A stretch of DNA of 64,000 nucleotides. It comes from Microscillaceae bacterium (GTDB taxonomy: Bacteria > Bacteroidota > Bacteroidia > Cytophagales > Microscillaceae). Numbering within the stretch: position 1 is the stretch's first letter; the number at the start of each line of letters is the position of its first letter. Position numbers and translations under genes: made by a program. The stretch lies in the NCBI GenBank assembly GCA_025054775.1, contig JANWZA010000058.1, positions 1 to 64,000 on the forward strand. Reading direction: 5' to 3'. Shown in pieces: positions 4,414 through 12,377 of the stretch. The notes under the pieces were generated by a model. That model was not told where the DNA came from. It did no database searches and was given only the letters and a program-made list of their open reading frames with translations.

Positions 4414-5164
4414 GTTTTCGGTATTGTTAAAATAGTATAGATAAATCATTCATTAAAAGTTTAACTGAATAGACTAGCATATAAACAACTTTAGAGTAAC
4501 ATCTAGTTTTCCTTCTTAATCGTGCTAAAAAATGACGAAAAAGACTATTATATCCTTCAACCGTAAAGGTATCCGCTTTGGATTGTATATGTATATCGTC
4601 TGGCATAAATGCTTCATATGCCTTCTAATAATCTGTACAAACCTTTCCCTTTATCTTCGGTTCAATCTTCTTCCAAAGTTTTTCACAAGTTCCAGTTCCC
4701 CTGGTACCAACTTCGCAATTGATGAGTCTACGCCCATCTCTATCAACAGCAATCCATATCCAACAATAGTTTTTTTTGAACCAATATATGTGTGCATCTC
4801 ATCTATTTCAACAACTTCAATAGCATCACTGCTCCGAATTTCATCAAGTTTTTTTCCGTATGCCTTAATCCAATTAAAGACTGTAACGTGACTAACTTTT
4901 AAGAAGCGACCAATGGAGCGAAATCCTAGACCTGCAAGATATAATATTAATGCATCACGTTTTAATTTTTCAGGTTTTCCTATATGTTCTACTGTAAAAC
5001 GAAAACTGCAGTCTTTACATTTGAACCGTTGTTTGCCTTTAACTATACCATCTTTACAAAATTTTGTTGATTTGCATTTGGGACATCGTTCCATAGTTTC
5101 AGGGTTATAGTAATTTTTTTTTGCAAAAATAAAAAATCTATACAAAATTAACAATACCAAAACC
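4414..5164 (-). mobile_element. IS1-family insertion sequence, degenerate
   Basis: About 750 bp, the usual IS1 size. Imperfect terminal inverted repeats of about 29 bp are seen: the left end at 4414-4442 and the right end at 5136-5164 share GGTATTGTTAA and GTATAGAT cores. Inside lies one transposase gene on the minus strand with an InsA-like zinc-finger part and an InsB-like catalytic part in the -1 frame. No 8-9 bp target duplication can be recognised in the flanks (AATGGTTCA against ACAGTCCAA), which suggests an old insertion or later rearrangement. The right end abuts the dispersed repeat at 5161-5260. Confidence 0.8.
4427..5094 (-). pseudogene. IS1-family transposase, inactivated
   Basis: Translation starts at the ATG at 5094 (MERCPKCKS). 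Residues CPKC and CKDC form the zinc ribbon, followed by a helix-turn-helix, then DEMHTYIGSKK. At A8C (bases 4769-4777) the frame must move -1 to continue as NYCWIWIAVDRDGRRL, the InsB part; IS1 elements use a programmed -1 shift at an A-rich site like this, so the shift itself need not be damage. In the -1 frame a TAG at 4625-4627 replaces the Tyr codon expected in DYYKAY, after which the frame stays open through FTVEGYNSLFRHFLARLRRKT to a stop at 4427. The amber codon makes the product truncated and most likely inactive. No intact copy is in the window. Confidence 0.85.
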
Positions 5165-5260
5165 ACAGTCCAAGAGTTTAATCATTTTTTCAATTACTCA
5201 AAATCTTTTTCATAAATAATTGTCTATCAAAACTTTAGTCTTATGACTTGCGTCAAAGTA
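5161..5260 (+). repeat. Dispersed repeat, copy A
   Basis: Bases 5161-5236 match the reverse complement of 50385-50460 with three mismatches; after a one-base gap the similarity continues through CGTCAAAG to 5257. No coding frame is conserved. Copy A lies between the right end of the IS1-family element and the engB promoter. Confidence 0.85.
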
Positions 5261-5273
5261 AAGAAAAGTACAA

Positions 5274-5282
5274 TTACTTTGC
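5274..5282 (+). promoter_or_regulatory. Promoter -7 element of engB
   Basis: TTACTTTGC, one base off the consensus, 52 bases before the chosen engB start. Confidence 0.45.
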
Positions 5283-5334
5283 CCAAAAATTCCTAACTTG
5301 CGAAAAAATGTAATACTTGGGTGTTGAGAAAGAT

Positions 5335-5940: not shown

Positions 5941-6066
5941 GCAATTTTGTACCTAGTAAGCTAACTTAAACTAGTAATCTGTATAATTTTTGCCAAATTT
6001 ATATTAAACCTTCCTTTCAAGAATTTGTCTGTTTTAATTGAGAAAATTAAGGGTGTTTTTTCAACT

Positions 6067-9000
6067 ATGGCTGTTCTACAACTATCCATAAAAAAATTAT
6101 TATTACTCTTTTGGAAAAGGGTAGTTTTAACGGTTTATCTACTTGCACTTTTCCAAATAAGTTTTGCCCAACTTAGTACTGAGGGGCGCGAATTTTGGGT
6201 AGGTTTTATGGAAATTATTCCCAATCAGCCCCCTGTGCAGAAACTTTACATCACGTCTAAGGTGAATACTACGGTAACGGTTACGATGGGAAGCCCTAGC
6301 TCACCTACGGTAATCGCAAATAATCAACCTATTACAGCAAATCAAATTACGACAATTAGTCTTCCTTCCACAGCCCAAGCTACGGGTTCAGAAACTAAAC
6401 AAACCATAGGGGTACGAGTTACCAGCCCTGATTTTATTAGCGTATTTGCAAGCAATGAGTCTAATGCCCGTAGTGAGGCTTCAGTGGTTATTCCTGTAAA
6501 TTCCTTAGGTGGAAATACGGAGTATATTGTAGCAGCTTACCAAGGTTCATCAGTAGGAACTTCAGGTGGTACTCCCCGCTCAGAGTTTTTAATCGTAGCT
6601 CTGGAGGATAATACTGTGGTTAATATTACACCCACTGCTGCCACTCGTGGAGGTAGACCTGCCAATGTAGTTTTCAGTACACCGACTCTCAATAGAGGTG
6701 ATGTTTATCAGGTACAAGCCAGTAGTGTTACGGCAGATTTAACAGGCACGCGTCTTGTGGCTTCAGGTAGTTGCAAACCTTTTGCTGTATTTGCAGGAGC
6801 AAATGCAACCCTTACTAACAATTCGTGCAATGCGTGGGAGCATCTTTATGAGCAACTCACTCCTATTCAAACCTGGGGCAGAGATTATTTGGTTACTCCT
6901 TTCAAATTTGCTTCCCAAGGGTATAGTTATCGGATTATTGCCAAAGATAACAATACAGTGGTAAGTATCAATGGTACACCTACTTACACACTGAATAGTG
7001 GGCAAGTGCAAGAGGTACAAGTGCCTAATGAAGCCGCCTTTTGTGTGCAGGCTGATAAACCTATTTGTGTAGCTCAATACAAAAAAGGGCAGGATTGTAA
7101 TGGCTTCCCGCCTGCGGGTTCTACACGTTTAGGAGACCCTGCTTTGCTTATTCTCAATCCTTTGAACCAAACCATTAAAGACATTTCTTTTTTTACTTTC
7201 CCTTTGCAAGGAGGCGCTATTGCCCGATATTTTGTGAATATAGTAACGCGTACTGCTAGTATAGCAAGAATTAAACTCAACGGAGTACCTATTTCACCTA
7301 CGTCATTTACGGCTTCCCCGTGTGGTAATTATTCTTATGCAAGTATAGAAATTTCTAATAGTAATCACAGACTCTCTTCGGATAGTAGTTTTATTGCTTA
7401 TGCCTATGGTTACGGGCAAGCCGAAGGATTTGCTTATAGCGTGGGAGGAGCTTTTGAGAATCAAGAATATAACTTTCACCTTCCTGCCACAGCCTGCGTA
7501 GGGCAAACTATAAACTTGCAAGGAACAGGCAATGTATTAGGTTTTAGTTGGAATTTTGGGAATGGACAAACTGCCACAGGGCAAAATGTTTCCGTAACTT
7601 ATACTTCACCTGGCTTCTATGAGGTAACTATGACCGTAACTATAAGTGGTGGTTGTGGAACAGATTTTGTCCGCAAAACGATTGAAATTTTACCTTATCC
7701 TACTGTAAATTTAGGACCTAATCGTGCCATCTGTCCTAATACTACCACTACGCTTAGTGCAGGCACACAACCCGCAGGAACCACTTACCTCTGGTCAAAT
7801 GGAGCCACCACACCCACTATTACTGTGGGAGCAGGTACTTACACCGTTACCGTTACCAATAGAGCAAATTGTAGTACTACAAGCAACCCCGTTACAATTT
7901 CGTTTCACCCTGTTACCTCTGTAACTACCAATGTACAAGCAGAATACTGCACCAACTCGCCTGCTTTTAGTATGAGCGGTACCCCTGCAGGGGGCAGTTT
8001 TACCATTAACGGTACTCCTGCTACGCAATTTGATCCAAGTGCTTTGGGAGCTGGCACTTTCACCGTAGTTTATACTGCCCAAGATGCTAATAATTGTACG
8101 GTAAGCAGTACACAAACCGTTACTATTAAACCTGCTGCAAATCTAACTTCTAACTTAAATACCGCAGGTTATTGTGTAAATGCACAAGCCGTTACCTTGC
8201 AAGGCACGCCCGCAGGCGGTAGCTTTACCATCAATGGCAACCCTGCTACACAATTCAACCCAAGCGTTTTGGGGGTGGGTACGCATACCGTGGTTTATAC
8301 CTACAATAATCCTAATGGCTGCATCAGTACTTTGCAACAAAACATTCAAGTTTTTCCTAAACCTAACCCAGTGATTGTAGGAGCTACCTCAGTGTGTGTA
8401 GAAACGGTGCAGACATATAGCGTGGCTTCAGTTGCAGGCAATACTTATCAATGGCAGGTAACTGATGCCGTAGGAACAATTTTGAGCGGACAAGGAACTC
8501 ACCAAATTACAGTGCGCTGGGACGCTCCCCTAAGCAATGCAGGTTTACAGATTACTCAAACTAATAGTAACAATTGTGCAGAAACTGCTACAATTGCTAT
8601 CGTAGTAAATCCGAAACCTACGGTACAAATTACAAATTTAAATCCAAGCTATTGCATCAATACTCCTGCTTTCAATTTGACAGCTACTCCCGTAGGTGGT
8701 ACATTTACCATCAATGGAAACAGTGCTAATCAATTTAATGCAAGTGCTTTGGGTGTAGGTAATCATACTGTAGTATACAGTTTCACAGATAACAACGGCT
8801 GTACCAATACCGACACTAAAACTGTACAAATATTTCCACTTCCCGTACTAACTATCAACGGCTTGGCTAATAGATATTGTATAGATAACGCTCCTATTAA
8901 CCTAACAGCCACGCCCGTAGGTGGTAGCTTTACTATCAATGGGAACGCTGCCACACAATTCAACCCAAATGTTTTAGGTGTAGGAACTCATATAGTTCGT

Positions 9001-10686
9001 TATACTTTTACAGATACTAATAACTGTACTAATACCTTAGAACAAAGCGTAGAGGTAGTACCGTTGCCTACGCTTGCTTTTGTAGGTTTGCAAAATCACT
9101 ACTGTATTGACGTACCTGCTTTTGTGCTAAGTGCTACTCCTGCAGGAGGAACTTTTAGGATAAATGGTAATGTAGCTACGCAATTCAATCCAAGCGCCTT
9201 AGGAGTAGGAACACATACTGTACGATACGAATTTACGGACAATAATAATTGCCGAAATACTATCGAGCGAAGTGTTGTGGTTAATCCGTTACCTACGCCA
9301 AGCATTGTGGGTTTAGCCCCAATTTATTGCTTGAACAGTGGGATTATTCAATTGGTAGGTAGCCCTGCGGGTGGTGTATTTAGGATAAATGGTAATGTAG
9401 CAACACACCTTAATCCGAGCATTTTAGGAATTGGTAATCACACCGTAACTTATACCTACACCGATGCTAATGGATGTACCAAACAAGTAAGTCAAAATAT
9501 TTCTATTGAAGAACCACGTGCCGATGTGCAAATTACAGGTTTGGGCTTTACCTATTGTATCAATGCCAATCCTTTTGAACTCACTGCCACACCTGCTGGC
9601 GGTGTGTTTACTATTAACGGCAATGTGGTTACCCACGTTAAACCTTCAGAATTAGGGGTAGGAGTCAAAACCGTATTCTATACTTATACTGACCCACGAA
9701 CTAACTGCTCAGTAACAGTTTCCAAAGATTTTGAAATTTCCAGTTTACCTTCAATAAGTATTGTTAATATTTCAGGATTAAACAATCAATATTGCCTTAA
9801 TGCTCCTCCTTTTAATTTGATAGCTAATCCCGCGGGCGGCGTTTTTACTATCAATGGAGTAGTAAAAACCCAACTTAATCCTGCCGAACTCGGACCTGGA
9901 CGGCACGTAATCATTTACAATTATCAAGACATAAATGGTTGCACTAACACCGACTCCAAAGTAATTACTATTCCTGAACTCCCTAATGTGACTTTAGCAT
10001 TGAAAGAAGCCTATTGCACGCAAAACCCTGCCATTACCTTGCAAGTAAGTCCTCCTAATGCGGGTAGCTTTACCATCAACGGTTTACCTGCTACGGTATT
10101 CAATCCGCAAGCCTTAGGAGTGGGAGAATTTATAGTTCGCTTCGTAGATCCAACAGGTTGTGTAGATTTGAGCAAAAAAGTTAAAATAAAAGCACCACCA
10201 GAACCAACCAAGTATGAAAATTTACGTATATGCTCTAACAGCGAAGACACTTTGCGGCTGACAGCTACCGAAGGCAAACGATACCGCTGGAATACAGGGG
10301 ACACCACGCGTACCATTGCCATACGAAAGTCAGGAAGGTACACTATACGTGTAATTGACGAGTTGGAGTGTTTTTCTGAAAGTACAATTGATGTTATTGA
10401 CGAGTGTTTTCCTGGTATCTATGTTCCTACTGCTTTCACACCTAACGGTGATGGATTGAACGATAAACTAGAAATTTTTGGAAGACATTTTGACAAATTT
10501 GAAACTTGGATTTTTAATAAGTGGGGAGAGGTTGTATTTCGTTCTAATGACCGCTACGTGAATTGGGACGGTACTTATTTGGGTAAAGAAGCACCTCCTG
10601 ACGTATATGTTTGTAAAATACGCTTCCGCTATTTGCCTAATAGCCCTATGCTGGAAAGAGTTTTCTCCGTAACGTTAATAAGATAA
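6067..10686 (+). CDS. Giant secreted repeat protein with IgGFc-binding-like and type B T9SS C-terminal domains
   Basis: 1539 residues from the ATG at 6067, which begins a clear signal peptide (hydrophobic core LLLLFWKRVVLTVYLLALF, cut after FAQ); the TTG at 6025 is rejected. Order of parts: an N-terminal region opening with GREFWVGFM, as in IgGFc-binding-like domains of Bacteroidota (about bases 6170-7480); a PKD domain with the WNFGNG core (about 7520-7690); an Ig-like spacer; nine Cys-containing modules of about 75 residues (7930-10190); and a C-terminal gliding-motility-type domain with YVPTAFTPNGDG (10420-10686), the signal for type IX secretion, type B. It is therefore predicted to be exported and held at or released from the cell surface as an adhesin or gliding-related filament. 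Ligand unknown. Confidence 0.85.
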   Translation: MAVLQLSIKKLLLLFWKRVVLTVYLLALFQISFAQLSTEGREFWVGFMEIIPNQPPVQKLYITSKVNTTVTVTMGSPSSPTVIANNQPITANQITTISLPSTAQATGSETKQTIGVRVTSPDFISVFASNESNARSEASVVIPVNSLGGNTEYIVAAYQGSSVGTSGGTPRSEFLIVALEDNTVVNITPTAATRGGRPANVVFSTPTLNRGDVYQVQASSVTADLTGTRLVASGSCKPFAVFAGANATLTNNSCNAWEHLYEQLTPIQTWGRDYLVTPFKFASQGYSYRIIAKDNNTVVSINGTPTYTLNSGQVQEVQVPNEAAFCVQADKPICVAQYKKGQDCNGFPPAGSTRLGDPALLILNPLNQTIKDISFFTFPLQGGAIARYFVNIVTRTASIARIKLNGVPISPTSFTASPCGNYSYASIEISNSNHRLSSDSSFIAYAYGYGQAEGFAYSVGGAFENQEYNFHLPATACVGQTINLQGTGNVLGFSWNFGNGQTATGQNVSVTYTSPGFYEVTMTVTISGGCGTDFVRKTIEILPYPTVNLGPNRAICPNTTTTLSAGTQPAGTTYLWSNGATTPTITVGAGTYTVTVTNRANCSTTSNPVTISFHPVTSVTTNVQAEYCTNSPAFSMSGTPAGGSFTINGTPATQFDPSALGAGTFTVVYTAQDANNCTVSSTQTVTIKPAANLTSNLNTAGYCVNAQAVTLQGTPAGGSFTINGNPATQFNPSVLGVGTHTVVYTYNNPNGCISTLQQNIQVFPKPNPVIVGATSVCVETVQTYSVASVAGNTYQWQVTDAVGTILSGQGTHQITVRWDAPLSNAGLQITQTNSNNCAETATIAIVVNPKPTVQITNLNPSYCINTPAFNLTATPVGGTFTINGNSANQFNASALGVGNHTVVYSFTDNNGCTNTDTKTVQIFPLPVLTINGLANRYCIDNAPINLTATPVGGSFTINGNAATQFNPNVLGVGTHIVRYTFTDTNNCTNTLEQSVEVVPLPTLAFVGLQNHYCIDVPAFVLSATPAGGTFRINGNVATQFNPSALGVGTHTVRYEFTDNNNCRNTIERSVVVNPLPTPSIVGLAPIYCLNSGIIQLVGSPAGGVFRINGNVATHLNPSILGIGNHTVTYTYTDANGCTKQVSQNISIEEPRADVQITGLGFTYCINANPFELTATPAGGVFTINGNVVTHVKPSELGVGVKTVFYTYTDPRTNCSVTVSKDFEISSLPSISIVNISGLNNQYCLNAPPFNLIANPAGGVFTINGVVKTQLNPAELGPGRHVIIYNYQDINGCTNTDSKVITIPELPNVTLALKEAYCTQNPAITLQVSPPNAGSFTINGLPATVFNPQALGVGEFIVRFVDPTGCVDLSKKVKIKAPPEPTKYENLRICSNSEDTLRLTATEGKRYRWNTGDTTRTIAIRKSGRYTIRVIDELECFSESTIDVIDECFPGIYVPTAFTPNGDGLNDKLEIFGRHFDKFETWIFNKWGEVVFRSNDRYVNWDGTYLGKEAPPDVYVCKIRFRYLPNSPMLERVFSVTLIR
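7930..10190 (+). repeat. Nine-copy protein module within the secreted protein
   Basis: Each module has a YC pair, then a core close to PAGGSFTINGNPATQFNP, then LGVGTHTVVY and a second Cys (NGC or NNC). YC pairs fall near bases 7945, 8170, 8650, 8874, 9098, 9325, 9554, 9788 and 10011. Modules 3-8 are spaced by about 225 bp; an Ig/PKD-like spacer (8370-8620) separates modules 2 and 3. The paired Cys residues suggest one disulfide per module. Confidence 0.85.
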
Positions 10687-10715
10687 AAATTGGAAAAGCA
10701 AAATGCTAAAATCTT

Positions 10716-10810
10716 GGAGTAGTGCCGTAGTATAGTGATACTTCGAAAATTAAGACAAAATCTGCCAAAGGCAGATGTCCCTTTCGCACTATACGCTTGT
10801 TGCCTACTCC
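10716..10810 (+). ncRNA. Candidate Y RNA (Ro-binding non-coding RNA)
   Basis: About 95 nt lying 43 bp before the Ro/TROVE gene on the same strand. The ends pair: GGAGTAG (10716-10722) with CTACTCC (10804-10810). After an asymmetric internal loop (TGCCGTA on the 5' side, GCTTGTTGC on the 3' side) a second perfect 8-bp helix pairs GTATAGTG (10730-10737) with CACTATAC (10787-10794). Inside, GACA (10754-10757) and TCTGCC (10761-10766) pair with GGCAGA (10770-10775) and TGTC (10776-10779) over an AAA loop. A T-rich tail follows at 10811-10829. This layout, end helix, bulged loop containing CCG, then a helix ending in AGTG/CACT, is that of the Ro-binding stem of animal Y RNAs as I remember it. Assignment is inference from structure and context; expression is untested. 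Confidence 0.6.
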
Positions 10811-10853
10811 TTTCTATTTTTTATTTATTGAATTATCTCAATCCTGATAATCT

Positions 10854-12377
10854 ATGCGTTTTAATACCCAAGCTCAAAATAAGGATTTAACTATAAACCA
10901 CGAAGGTGCAGAAGCCTATTACCTCCCCGTGAAAATGGACTTGTACACCACTGTGGTAACTTCGGCTTTGTCAGACCAATTTTATGAAAAAGCAGACAAG
11001 AGAATAGAACGCCTAAGAGAACTTATTAAGCAATGCGAGCCAACCTTTGTAGCCAAACTCGCTATTTATGCTCGTGAGCAAATGTATTTGCGTTCTGTTC
11101 CGTTGGTGCTTGCCGTAGAACTTGCTAAAATTCATAAAAACGATAACTTAGTGAGCCGTTTGGTTGCCCGCATTGTGCAACGTGCCGATGAGATTACCGA
11201 ATTGTTGGCATACTATCAATTAGCCAATGAAAGGAATGGTACGAAAAAATTAGGTAAACTTTCCAAACAAATTCAAAAAGGTTTGGCACAAGCCTTTAAT
11301 AAATTTGACGAGTACCAATTTGCCAAGTACAACCGTAAAACGGAGATAAAACTTCGTGATGCGTTGTTTTTGGTGCACCCCAAAGCCAAAAATGAAACCC
11401 AACAAGCAATTTTTGATAAAATTGTAAAAGACGAGTTGCAGACACCTTATACGTGGGAAGTGGAACTTTCGGTACTAGGGCAACAAACTTTTGCTACCGA
11501 GCAAGATAAACAACAGGCATTCCAAGCCAAATGGGAGGAGTTGATTGATAGTGGTAAAGTGGGCTACATGGCATTGCTTCGTAACTTACGCAATATCCTT
11601 CAAGCGAAGGTAAGTGCGACGCATCTACAAAAAGTGGCTACACGCATAGCTAACCAGCATGAAGTAGCTAATTCTAAGCAGTTACCTTTTCGCTTTTTAG
11701 CAGCATACAAGGAACTGATTAACCTTGAAGAACCCTCTCCTTTTGTAAGTTTACTTCTGGAGAGTTTAGAACAAGCCGTGAAAGCCAGTGTAGTCAATTT
11801 ACAAGGTTTTGATGCTCAAACTACAGTGCTATTAGCGTGTGATGTTTCAGGTTCAATGCAACGACCTATTTCTCCAAGAAGCAAAATTGAGAACTATGAT
11901 ATTGGGTTGATATTAGCTATGCTTTTACAATCCGAATGTCAGTCTGTAATTAGTGGCTTTTTTGGAGATACGTGGAAAGTAGTTAATTTACCTTCAAGCC
12001 ATATACTTTCTAATTGTAAGGAATTGCGTCGTAGAGAGGGCGAAGTGGGCTATTCTACCAATGGCTACAAAGTGCTAGAGTATTTAATTGAAAATAAACT
12101 TGCCGTAGACAAGGTAATGTTTTTTACTGACTGCCAAATGTGGAACAATAAAAATACTGATACTACATTTGCAGGCACTTGGCAAAAGTATAAAAAAATT
12201 GCCCCCCGAGCCAAATTATACTTGTTTGATTTAGTAGGTTACGGAAATACACCATTGCAAATAGAAAGACAAGACGTGTACCTAATTGCAGGTTGGTCAG
12301 ACAAGATTTTTGAGGTATTAGAAAATTTAGAAAAAGGAGAAGATACTTTGGCAATGATAGAAAATATTAGATTTTAG
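10854..12377 (+). CDS. rsr: Ro60-like TROVE domain ribonucleoprotein (Rsr)
   Basis: 507 residues. The first ~300 form the TROVE HEAT-repeat ring (conserved helices such as REQMYLRSVPLVLAVEL and KLRDALFLVHPKAKN at about 165-179); the C-terminal ~190 are a von Willebrand A fold with an intact metal site DVSGSM at residues 330-335. The family binds Y RNAs on the ring's outer face and misfolded or single-stranded RNA ends through the hole; in Deinococcus and Salmonella Rsr works with PNPase in RNA decay and stress survival. No PNPase, RtcB or other RNA gene is adjacent here. The start is the ATG at 10854, 43 bases after the candidate Y RNA; no separate promoter is evident between them, so the two may share a transcript. 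The next gene is convergent, with 9 bp between stops. Confidence 0.92.
   Translation: MRFNTQAQNKDLTINHEGAEAYYLPVKMDLYTTVVTSALSDQFYEKADKRIERLRELIKQCEPTFVAKLAIYAREQMYLRSVPLVLAVELAKIHKNDNLVSRLVARIVQRADEITELLAYYQLANERNGTKKLGKLSKQIQKGLAQAFNKFDEYQFAKYNRKTEIKLRDALFLVHPKAKNETQQAIFDKIVKDELQTPYTWEVELSVLGQQTFATEQDKQQAFQAKWEELIDSGKVGYMALLRNLRNILQAKVSATHLQKVATRIANQHEVANSKQLPFRFLAAYKELINLEEPSPFVSLLLESLEQAVKASVVNLQGFDAQTTVLLACDVSGSMQRPISPRSKIENYDIGLILAMLLQSECQSVISGFFGDTWKVVNLPSSHILSNCKELRRREGEVGYSTNGYKVLEYLIENKLAVDKVMFFTDCQMWNNKNTDTTFAGTWQKYKKIAPRAKLYLFDLVGYGNTPLQIERQDVYLIAGWSDKIFEVLENLEKGEDTLAMIENIRF

What the first reader, a model, noticed from the sequence alone, without database searches (positions are those of the whole stretch)
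10716..12377. Candidate Y RNA directly upstream of a bacterial Ro60/TROVE gene
Seen: a ~95-nt stretch whose ends pair (GGAGTAG/CTACTCC), followed after an uneven internal loop by a perfect 8-bp helix (GTATAGTG/CACTATAC), an inner hairpin and a T-rich tail, 43 bp before an intact TROVE gene. Known: Ro proteins bind Y RNAs through a bulged lower stem, and bacterial Y RNAs often lie next to rsr. The similarity to the animal Ro-binding stem (CCG on the 5' bulge, AGTG/CACT above, CUUG on the 3' side) is from memory. Inference: this is the partner RNA of a Ro/Y RNP in a Bacteroidota lineage, where such RNAs are little described. It lacks an obvious tRNA-like YrlA module, so it may be a different class.
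Basis: partly seen in the sequence, partly recalled or inferred. Interest (0 to 1): 0.75.

Follow-up and report, generated by a model that had tools for sequence, protein, structure and literature searches.

The report
Short Y RNA beside Ro60 gene
Right next to a bacterial version of the human lupus autoantigen Ro60 sits a gene for a small "Y RNA"; many pair-preserving mutations in relatives show that the RNA is real, and unusually this genome seems to hold only this one stripped-down copy, without the tRNA look-alike part that most relatives carry.

Summary
Window 10716-10810 (+) encodes a ~95-nt RNA 43 bp before an intact Ro60/Rsr gene (10854-12377). It folds far better than shuffles (z -5.4). 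Its core recurs 268 times in 64 Bacteroidota rsr loci, always on the rsr strand; 16 of 17 stem pairs show compensatory changes. A covariance model hits 16 of 17 related genomes with full-length rsr (the exception is cut by a contig end) and 0 of 40 others. An invariant unpaired C (10726) lies where the Ro-contacting C9 of animal Y RNAs would be. Long relatives carry a permuted tRNA-like module and match Rfam YrlA below cut-off, so the family is homologous to YrlA. The window copy has a plain hairpin instead, and no second Y RNA was found in this 99%-complete genome; only 6 of 64 loci lack a tRNA-like copy.

It is a Y RNA, a known kind; the solitary non-tRNA-like form is the variant. Rsr binding is inferred; PNPase tethering without the tRNA mimic is open. 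By-products: Y RNAs abutting tRNA genes, a conserved operator and WYL regulator at many rsr genes, and matching Y RNAs in 44 of 62 rsr-bearing viral contigs.

The parts
10716..10810 (+). Y RNA (about 95 nt), short form
   Evidence: Covariance model R1 hit 10714-10813, 70.2 bits, E 7.8e-17 in the window (R1 was trained with this copy included); model R2, built from long forms only and without the window, finds it independently at 63.3 bits; fold z -5.4
10716..10722 (+). lower stem, 5' strand (GGAGUAG), pairs with 10804-10810
   Evidence: this stem was not used to select homologues and still gives several of the strongest covarying column pairs in 211 cores; 8 of the 9 pairs of this helix have double changes
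10723..10723 (+). single-nucleotide U bulge
   Evidence: U in 262 of 268 homologues
10724..10725 (+). 2-bp step G-C, C-G with 10802-10803; the second pair switches C-G/U-A among relatives
10726..10726 (+). invariant unpaired C, placed like the Ro-contacting bulged C9 of animal Y RNAs
   Evidence: C in 265 of 268 homologues; role of C9 from PMC4030889; the positional equivalence is inference
10730..10737 (+). upper helix, 5' strand (GUAUAGUG), pairs with 10787-10794
   Evidence: all 8 pairs have double compensatory changes; register of this helix was used in picking homologues
10739..10745 (+). conserved UACUUCG segment above the upper helix
   Evidence: near-invariant among homologues; it was part of the search anchor
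10746..10785 (+). effector end: plain hairpin (GACA..UCUGCC AAA GGCAGA..GUC), in the place of the tRNA-like module of long relatives
   Evidence: fold; no T arm or D arm; model R2 and Rfam YrlA do not align a tRNA module here
10787..10794 (+). upper helix, 3' strand (CACUAUAC)
10795..10803 (+). conserved 3' internal-loop strand GCUUGUUGC
   Evidence: U10800 conserved in 263 of 268
10804..10810 (+). lower stem, 3' strand (CUACUCC)
10811..10828 (+). T-rich tail, possible 3' end or terminator
   Evidence: sequence; no terminator called there by the consensus scan
10854..12377 (+). rsr, Ro60 orthologue: TROVE + vWA (MIDAS DVSGS) protein, 507 aa
   Evidence: Pfam PF05731 3e-33 and PF25045 7e-8; AlphaFold model pLDDT 88, Foldseek top hits Xenopus Ro 1yvr/1yvp, TM up to 0.76

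Best explanation
10716-10810 encodes a Y RNA, the dedicated RNA partner of the adjacent Rsr (Ro60). Shown: it is a conserved, pair-constrained RNA whose presence tracks rsr, with the same core as the YrlA-type Y RNAs of other Bacteroidota. Inferred: Rsr grips the lower stem, the 2-bp step and the invariant unpaired C, as in animal Ro/Y complexes; the RNA is probably transcribed with rsr or from a nearby promoter and trimmed. Inferred with less confidence: the Y RNA occupies the outside of the Rsr ring, stabilises it and controls which other RNAs enter (gate). Because the tRNA-like module that contacts PNPase in known bacterial Y RNAs is replaced by a plain hairpin, in this organism the RNA acts mainly as a gate/stabiliser, or tethers an exonuclease through the hairpin in a way not yet described. 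The stated confidence is for 'a Y RNA that partners Rsr'; for gate-only against tethering I give about 0.55 to 0.45.
For: Covariation: 91.9% of cells paired against 65.0% in shuffles, 16 of 17 pairs with compensatory change, slid registers fall to 41-51%; mutual information on 211 cores, with the lower stem not used for selection. Co-occurrence with rsr: 16 of 17 relatives with full-length rsr, 0 of 40 without; phylum sample 9 of 11 against 1 of 137, where one of the two misses has Y RNAs on a more sensitive rescan and the single extra is a Y RNA beside a truncated rsr. All 268 copies on the rsr strand. Invariant unpaired C in 265 of 268. R2, built without the window, finds the window copy at 63.3 bits. 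Rsr has the Ro fold. The genome encodes PNPase. Single copy in the whole 99-kb contig and among scored genome candidates.
Against: No expression or binding data. Rfam's Y_RNA and YrlA models do not recognise the window copy. The window RNA lacks the T-arm-like hairpin implicated in PNPase contact (PMC6181284), so the RYPER part of the mechanism may not apply. No convincing promoter or terminator was recognised.
Confidence: 0.93

Rival explanations
1. It is a cis-regulatory leader of rsr (a structured 5' UTR, perhaps bound by Rsr for feedback) and not a free RNA.
For: It lies 43 bp before rsr on the same strand, with similar spacing in two relatives; no clear promoter or terminator separates it.
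Against: 233 of 268 homologues lie downstream of rsr and none on the opposite strand; many form head-to-tail arrays or abut tRNA genes, which a leader does not explain. The two roles could coexist in the window.
Confidence: 0.05
2. Y RNA that works exactly as in Deinococcus: it tethers Rsr to PNPase (RYPER) through its hairpin, without needing tRNA mimicry. This is a sub-case of the main explanation, not exclusive of it.
For: PNPase is encoded; [quoted passage not shown] radiodurans (PMC6181284, PMC7790460).
Against: The T-arm-like hairpin said to contact PNPase is absent from the window copy.
Confidence: 0.35
3. Decaying relic: the last remnant of a former Y RNA array, its tRNA-like domain already lost.
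For: Close relatives carry several Y RNAs with tRNA-like modules; the window genome has one short copy.
Against: Core, stems and invariant bases are intact (70.2 bits, among the best scores of the family) and rsr is intact; short forms recur widely (about half of the 92 copies without a T arm are under 90 nt).
Confidence: 0.05
4. A chance hairpin or terminator of the upstream adhesin gene.
For: It starts 29 bp after the stop codon of the upstream ORF and ends in a T-rich tract.
Against: Covariation and co-occurrence with rsr.
Confidence: 0.01

Closest known systems
YrlA, Rfam RF02553 (bacterial Y RNA-like A, e.g. Salmonella; PDB 6CU1)
   Same: Beside rsr; end-to-end stem for Rsr; long Bacteroidota relatives of the window RNA match the model at up to 47.8 bits, E 5.6e-8, and carry T arm, acceptor-like hairpin and D arm
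   Different: Window copy has no tRNA-like module and no RF02553 match; even the long relatives scanned stay below the 69-bit gathering score
Deinococcus radiodurans Y RNA of the RYPER complex
   Same: Partner of a TROVE/vWA Rsr; stem-based Ro site; genome also encodes PNPase
   Different: D. radiodurans effector end has two hairpins, one T-arm-like (PMC6181284); the window has one plain hairpin
Animal Y RNAs (Rfam RF00019)
   Same: Lower stem, unpaired C on the 5' side, upper helix; animal C9 is the primary Ro60 contact (PMC4030889)
   Different: No Rfam match at E<=10; an extra U bulge and a different internal loop; the sequence likeness itself is from memory
Bacteroides thetaiotaomicron Ro60/Y RNA RNP (Greiling et al. 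2018, via PMC11277228)
   Same: Bacteroidota Ro60 with co-precipitated Y RNAs

Membership tests
Bacterial Y RNA | Encoded next to an rsr/Ro60 gene | tested here: met
   43 bp upstream of rsr, same strand; 268 of 268 homologues on the rsr strand
Bacterial Y RNA | Long stem formed by 5' and 3' ends, conserved by compensatory change | tested here: met
Bacterial Y RNA | Conserved unpaired/bulged C in the stem (Ro contact) | tested here: met
   C10726 invariant in 265 of 268; that it contacts Rsr is not testable here
Bacterial Y RNA | Distribution follows rsr | tested here: met
   16/17 against 0/40; 9/11 against 1/137, the extra having an rsr remnant
Bacterial Y RNA | Stable transcript bound by Rsr | not testable with these tools
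   needs Northern blot and Rsr pull-down
Bacterial Y RNA | Tethers PNPase (RYPER) | not testable with these tools
   PNPase gene present, interaction unknown
YrlA (RF02553) | tRNA-like module (T, D, acceptor arms) | tested here: not met
   absent from the window copy; present in 176 of 268 relatives by T-arm test
YrlA (RF02553) | Rfam gathering score 69 bits | tested here: not met
   no match in own genome at E<=0.001; best relative among five loci scanned 47.8 bits
Animal Y RNA (RF00019) | Rfam model match | tested here: not met
   no match at E<=10
Rsr/Ro60 | TROVE + vWA domains with MIDAS DxSxS | tested here: met
   Pfam PF05731, PF25045; D330, S332, S334 invariant in 37 relatives
Rsr/Ro60 | Ro ring fold | tested here: met
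   Foldseek 1yvp TM 0.76, 2nvo TM 0.58; profile search finds 1yvp and 2nvo
Rsr/Ro60 | NCBIfam NF041674 equivalog cut-off | tested here: not met
   31 bits against 900: a divergent orthologue that current naming rules miss

The most novel reading that the evidence does not exclude
A complete Ro RNP system with a single Y RNA that has no tRNA mimicry: the tRNA-like effector is dispensable, so Ro/Y function here rests on gating Rsr or on an unknown partner bound by the plain hairpin. The same lineage would show that tRNA-mimic and plain Y RNAs are two interchangeable modules on one Ro-binding core shared by Bacteroidota and viruses.
Probability: 0.4. Interest if true: 0.7.

Novelty: new variant of a known kind. 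Interest (0 to 1): 0.56.

Why it matters
Bacterial Y RNAs are known as tRNA mimics, and from memory of Chen et al. 2014 at least one Y RNA per species has the tRNA-like domain. A genome with only a plain Y RNA is a natural test of what that domain does. The covariance models made here find Y RNAs beside rsr across Bacteroidota and in viral contigs, where Rfam's YrlA stays below its cut-off and NCBI's Rsr model does not name the protein. Since Ro60 orthologues of gut Bacteroidota are discussed as triggers of anti-Ro60 lupus autoimmunity (PMC11277228), being able to name the RNA half of those RNPs is of practical use.

Tried and rejected
Second, tRNA-like Y RNA in the same genome: pattern with up to 3 mismatches, R1 and R2 genome searches, and full scans of the whole 99-kb contig gave only this locus; the other R2 hits inspected are ordinary tRNA genes. 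Limit: the genome searches score only the best 150 candidates. Bacteroidota promoter motif TTG-N17-23-TANNTTTG upstream of isolated Y RNAs: 0 of 114, against 0.17 in shuffles. Animal Y RNA membership by Rfam: no match. Orphan Y RNA in G184: explained by an N-terminal rsr remnant directly beside it. L006 at first looked like another relative without tRNA-like Y RNAs, but that genome has four more Y RNAs on another contig. The rsr operator/WYL regulator as control of the window locus: operator absent here. The key papers (Chen 2014, Sim and Wolin reviews, Greiling 2018) are not held.

Full report
Observation. The sequence is as described: GGAGTAG (10716-10722) pairs with CTACTCC (10804-10810), GTATAGTG (10730-10737) with CACTATAC (10787-10794), with an inner hairpin, a T-rich tail and a 507-codon TROVE gene from 10854. 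The stretch folds at -34.9 kcal/mol, z -5.4 against dinucleotide shuffles. Rfam has nothing convincing for it.

The protein. Pfam gives TROVE (3e-33) and vWA_Ro60 (7e-8). A model from 37 relatives (mean pLDDT 88) matches Xenopus Ro (1yvp, TM 0.76) and D. radiodurans Rsr (2nvo, TM 0.58). The vWA MIDAS residues are invariant in the 37-sequence alignment. NCBI's Rsr model scores only 31 of 900 bits, so it is a divergent orthologue.

Homologues. Relatives were collected by protein only. Anchoring on TGCCGTAG-N8-TACTTCG ... CGCTTGTTGCC found the same core one to several times in most loci. In 211 distinct cores, mutual information picks out the two stems almost exclusively. The lower stem had played no part in choosing the sequences; the upper helix had been used to set the register. 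On a sequence-only MAFFT alignment of 24 short forms, 91.9% of cells pair against 65.0% in shuffles, 115 cells have double changes against 32, and slid registers collapse.

Models. R1 (short forms, window included in training) hits the window once, 70.2 bits. R2 (26 long forms, window not included) also finds it, 63.3 bits, an independent confirmation. R1 hits 16 of the 17 related genomes with full-length rsr and none of 40 others. In the missing one the locus is cut by a contig end and a truncated hit is visible there. In a phylum sample it hits 9 of 11 TROVE genomes and 1 of 137 others. One of the two misses (G130) has three Y RNAs on a more sensitive rescan. The extra (G184) has about the first 134 codons of an rsr left beside the Y RNA. 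Only G149, with a 30%-identical Rsr, has none, perhaps a different Y RNA class.

Anatomy. From the outside in: a 7-bp lower stem, a bulged U (262/268), two pairs (the second switching C-G/U-A), an unpaired C (265/268) followed by GU, an 8-bp helix, UACUUCG, then an effector end. Animal Ro60 contacts a conserved bulged C9, said to be retained in bacterial Y RNAs (PMC4030889). The unpaired C at 10726 is placed alike; this equivalence is inference.

Effector end. In 176 of 268 relatives this end holds a T arm. The long-form alignment shows T arm, acceptor-like hairpin, then D arm, i.e. a permuted tRNA, and some long forms match Rfam YrlA up to E 5.6e-8, below its cut-off. The window family and YrlA are therefore homologous. 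The window copy has a plain hairpin instead. 58 of 64 loci have at least one copy with a T arm; the exceptions are the window, L006, L034, L041, L078 and L081. L006's genome has more Y RNAs elsewhere and several other loci are cut short, so the count of true exceptions is uncertain. For the window the whole 99-kb contig was scanned and the genome with two models. The genome scans score only the best 150 candidates, so 'only one Y RNA' is likely but not proven.

Location. 233 of 268 Y RNAs lie downstream of rsr, 35 upstream, all on its strand. In several near relatives they lie upstream, in two of them 44-45 bp from rsr, much like the window.

Mechanism. [quoted passage not shown]). PNPase is encoded here. 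Rsr binding by the window RNA is inferred from conservation and co-occurrence. Whether it tethers PNPase without the T arm is open; I lean to a gate/stabiliser role, with tethering through the hairpin as the main alternative.

Novelty. Y RNAs next to bacterial Ro60 are known, also in phages (Chen et al. 2014, known to me from memory and through citations) and in B. thetaiotaomicron RNPs. What is new here is the short, apparently solitary form and a model that reaches the phylum's copies. The tRNA-Y adjacency and the rsr operator (see items noticed in passing) were not found in the papers that could be searched, which is a limited search.

Noticed in passing
L002, L005, L016, L033, L038, L069, L071, L088 (e.g. 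L071:2692-2781 tRNA-Lys, Y RNA 2779-2855, tRNA-Ile from 2855): Y RNAs interleaved with tRNA genes: the tRNA 3' end lies 3-7 nt before the Y core, about the length of the Y lower-stem strand, suggesting that tRNA 3' processing makes the Y RNA 5' end. 29 of 58 Y RNAs in tRNA-bearing loci have a tRNA within 25 nt.
   Followed up: partly
L010, L063, L074, L022 and others: Arrays of up to nine Y RNAs beside rsr, often head to tail; 100 of 204 neighbour gaps are 20 nt or less.
   Followed up: partly
upstream of rsr in 55 of 96 loci, e.g. L058, L065, L067: Conserved palindromic element ACTRCGCA-N7-TGCGYAGT at near-fixed distance before CTTTGTAT, mostly 60-115 nt before rsr (background 0.024 per 350 nt); absent from the window. 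Looks like an operator.
   Followed up: partly
divergent to rsr in 13 of 28 inspected loci, e.g. L067:1864-2874 (-), L036:1848-2888 (-): A ~340-aa regulator; two tested carry WYL and WCX domains. It may control rsr and its Y RNAs.
   Followed up: partly
IMG/VR loci L153-L232: 44 of 62 rsr-bearing viral contigs scanned carry R1 hits (E<=0.01), all on the rsr strand and mostly just upstream of rsr, even where Rsr is only ~33% identical.
   Followed up: partly
L133 (G184:C37), about 4677-5306 (-): rsr truncated to about its first 134 codons with the Y RNA retained beside it.
   Followed up: yes
L135 (G149): Divergent Rsr (30% identity) without any R1 hit; may use another Y RNA class.
   Followed up: no
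window 6025-10686 (+): 1553-aa secreted protein with IgGFc-binding, PKD/HYR repeats and a CHU_C type IX secretion signal directly upstream.
   Followed up: no
window 4651-5166 (-): ORF that looks like an IS1-type transposase, from its zinc-finger-like start (by eye).
   Followed up: no
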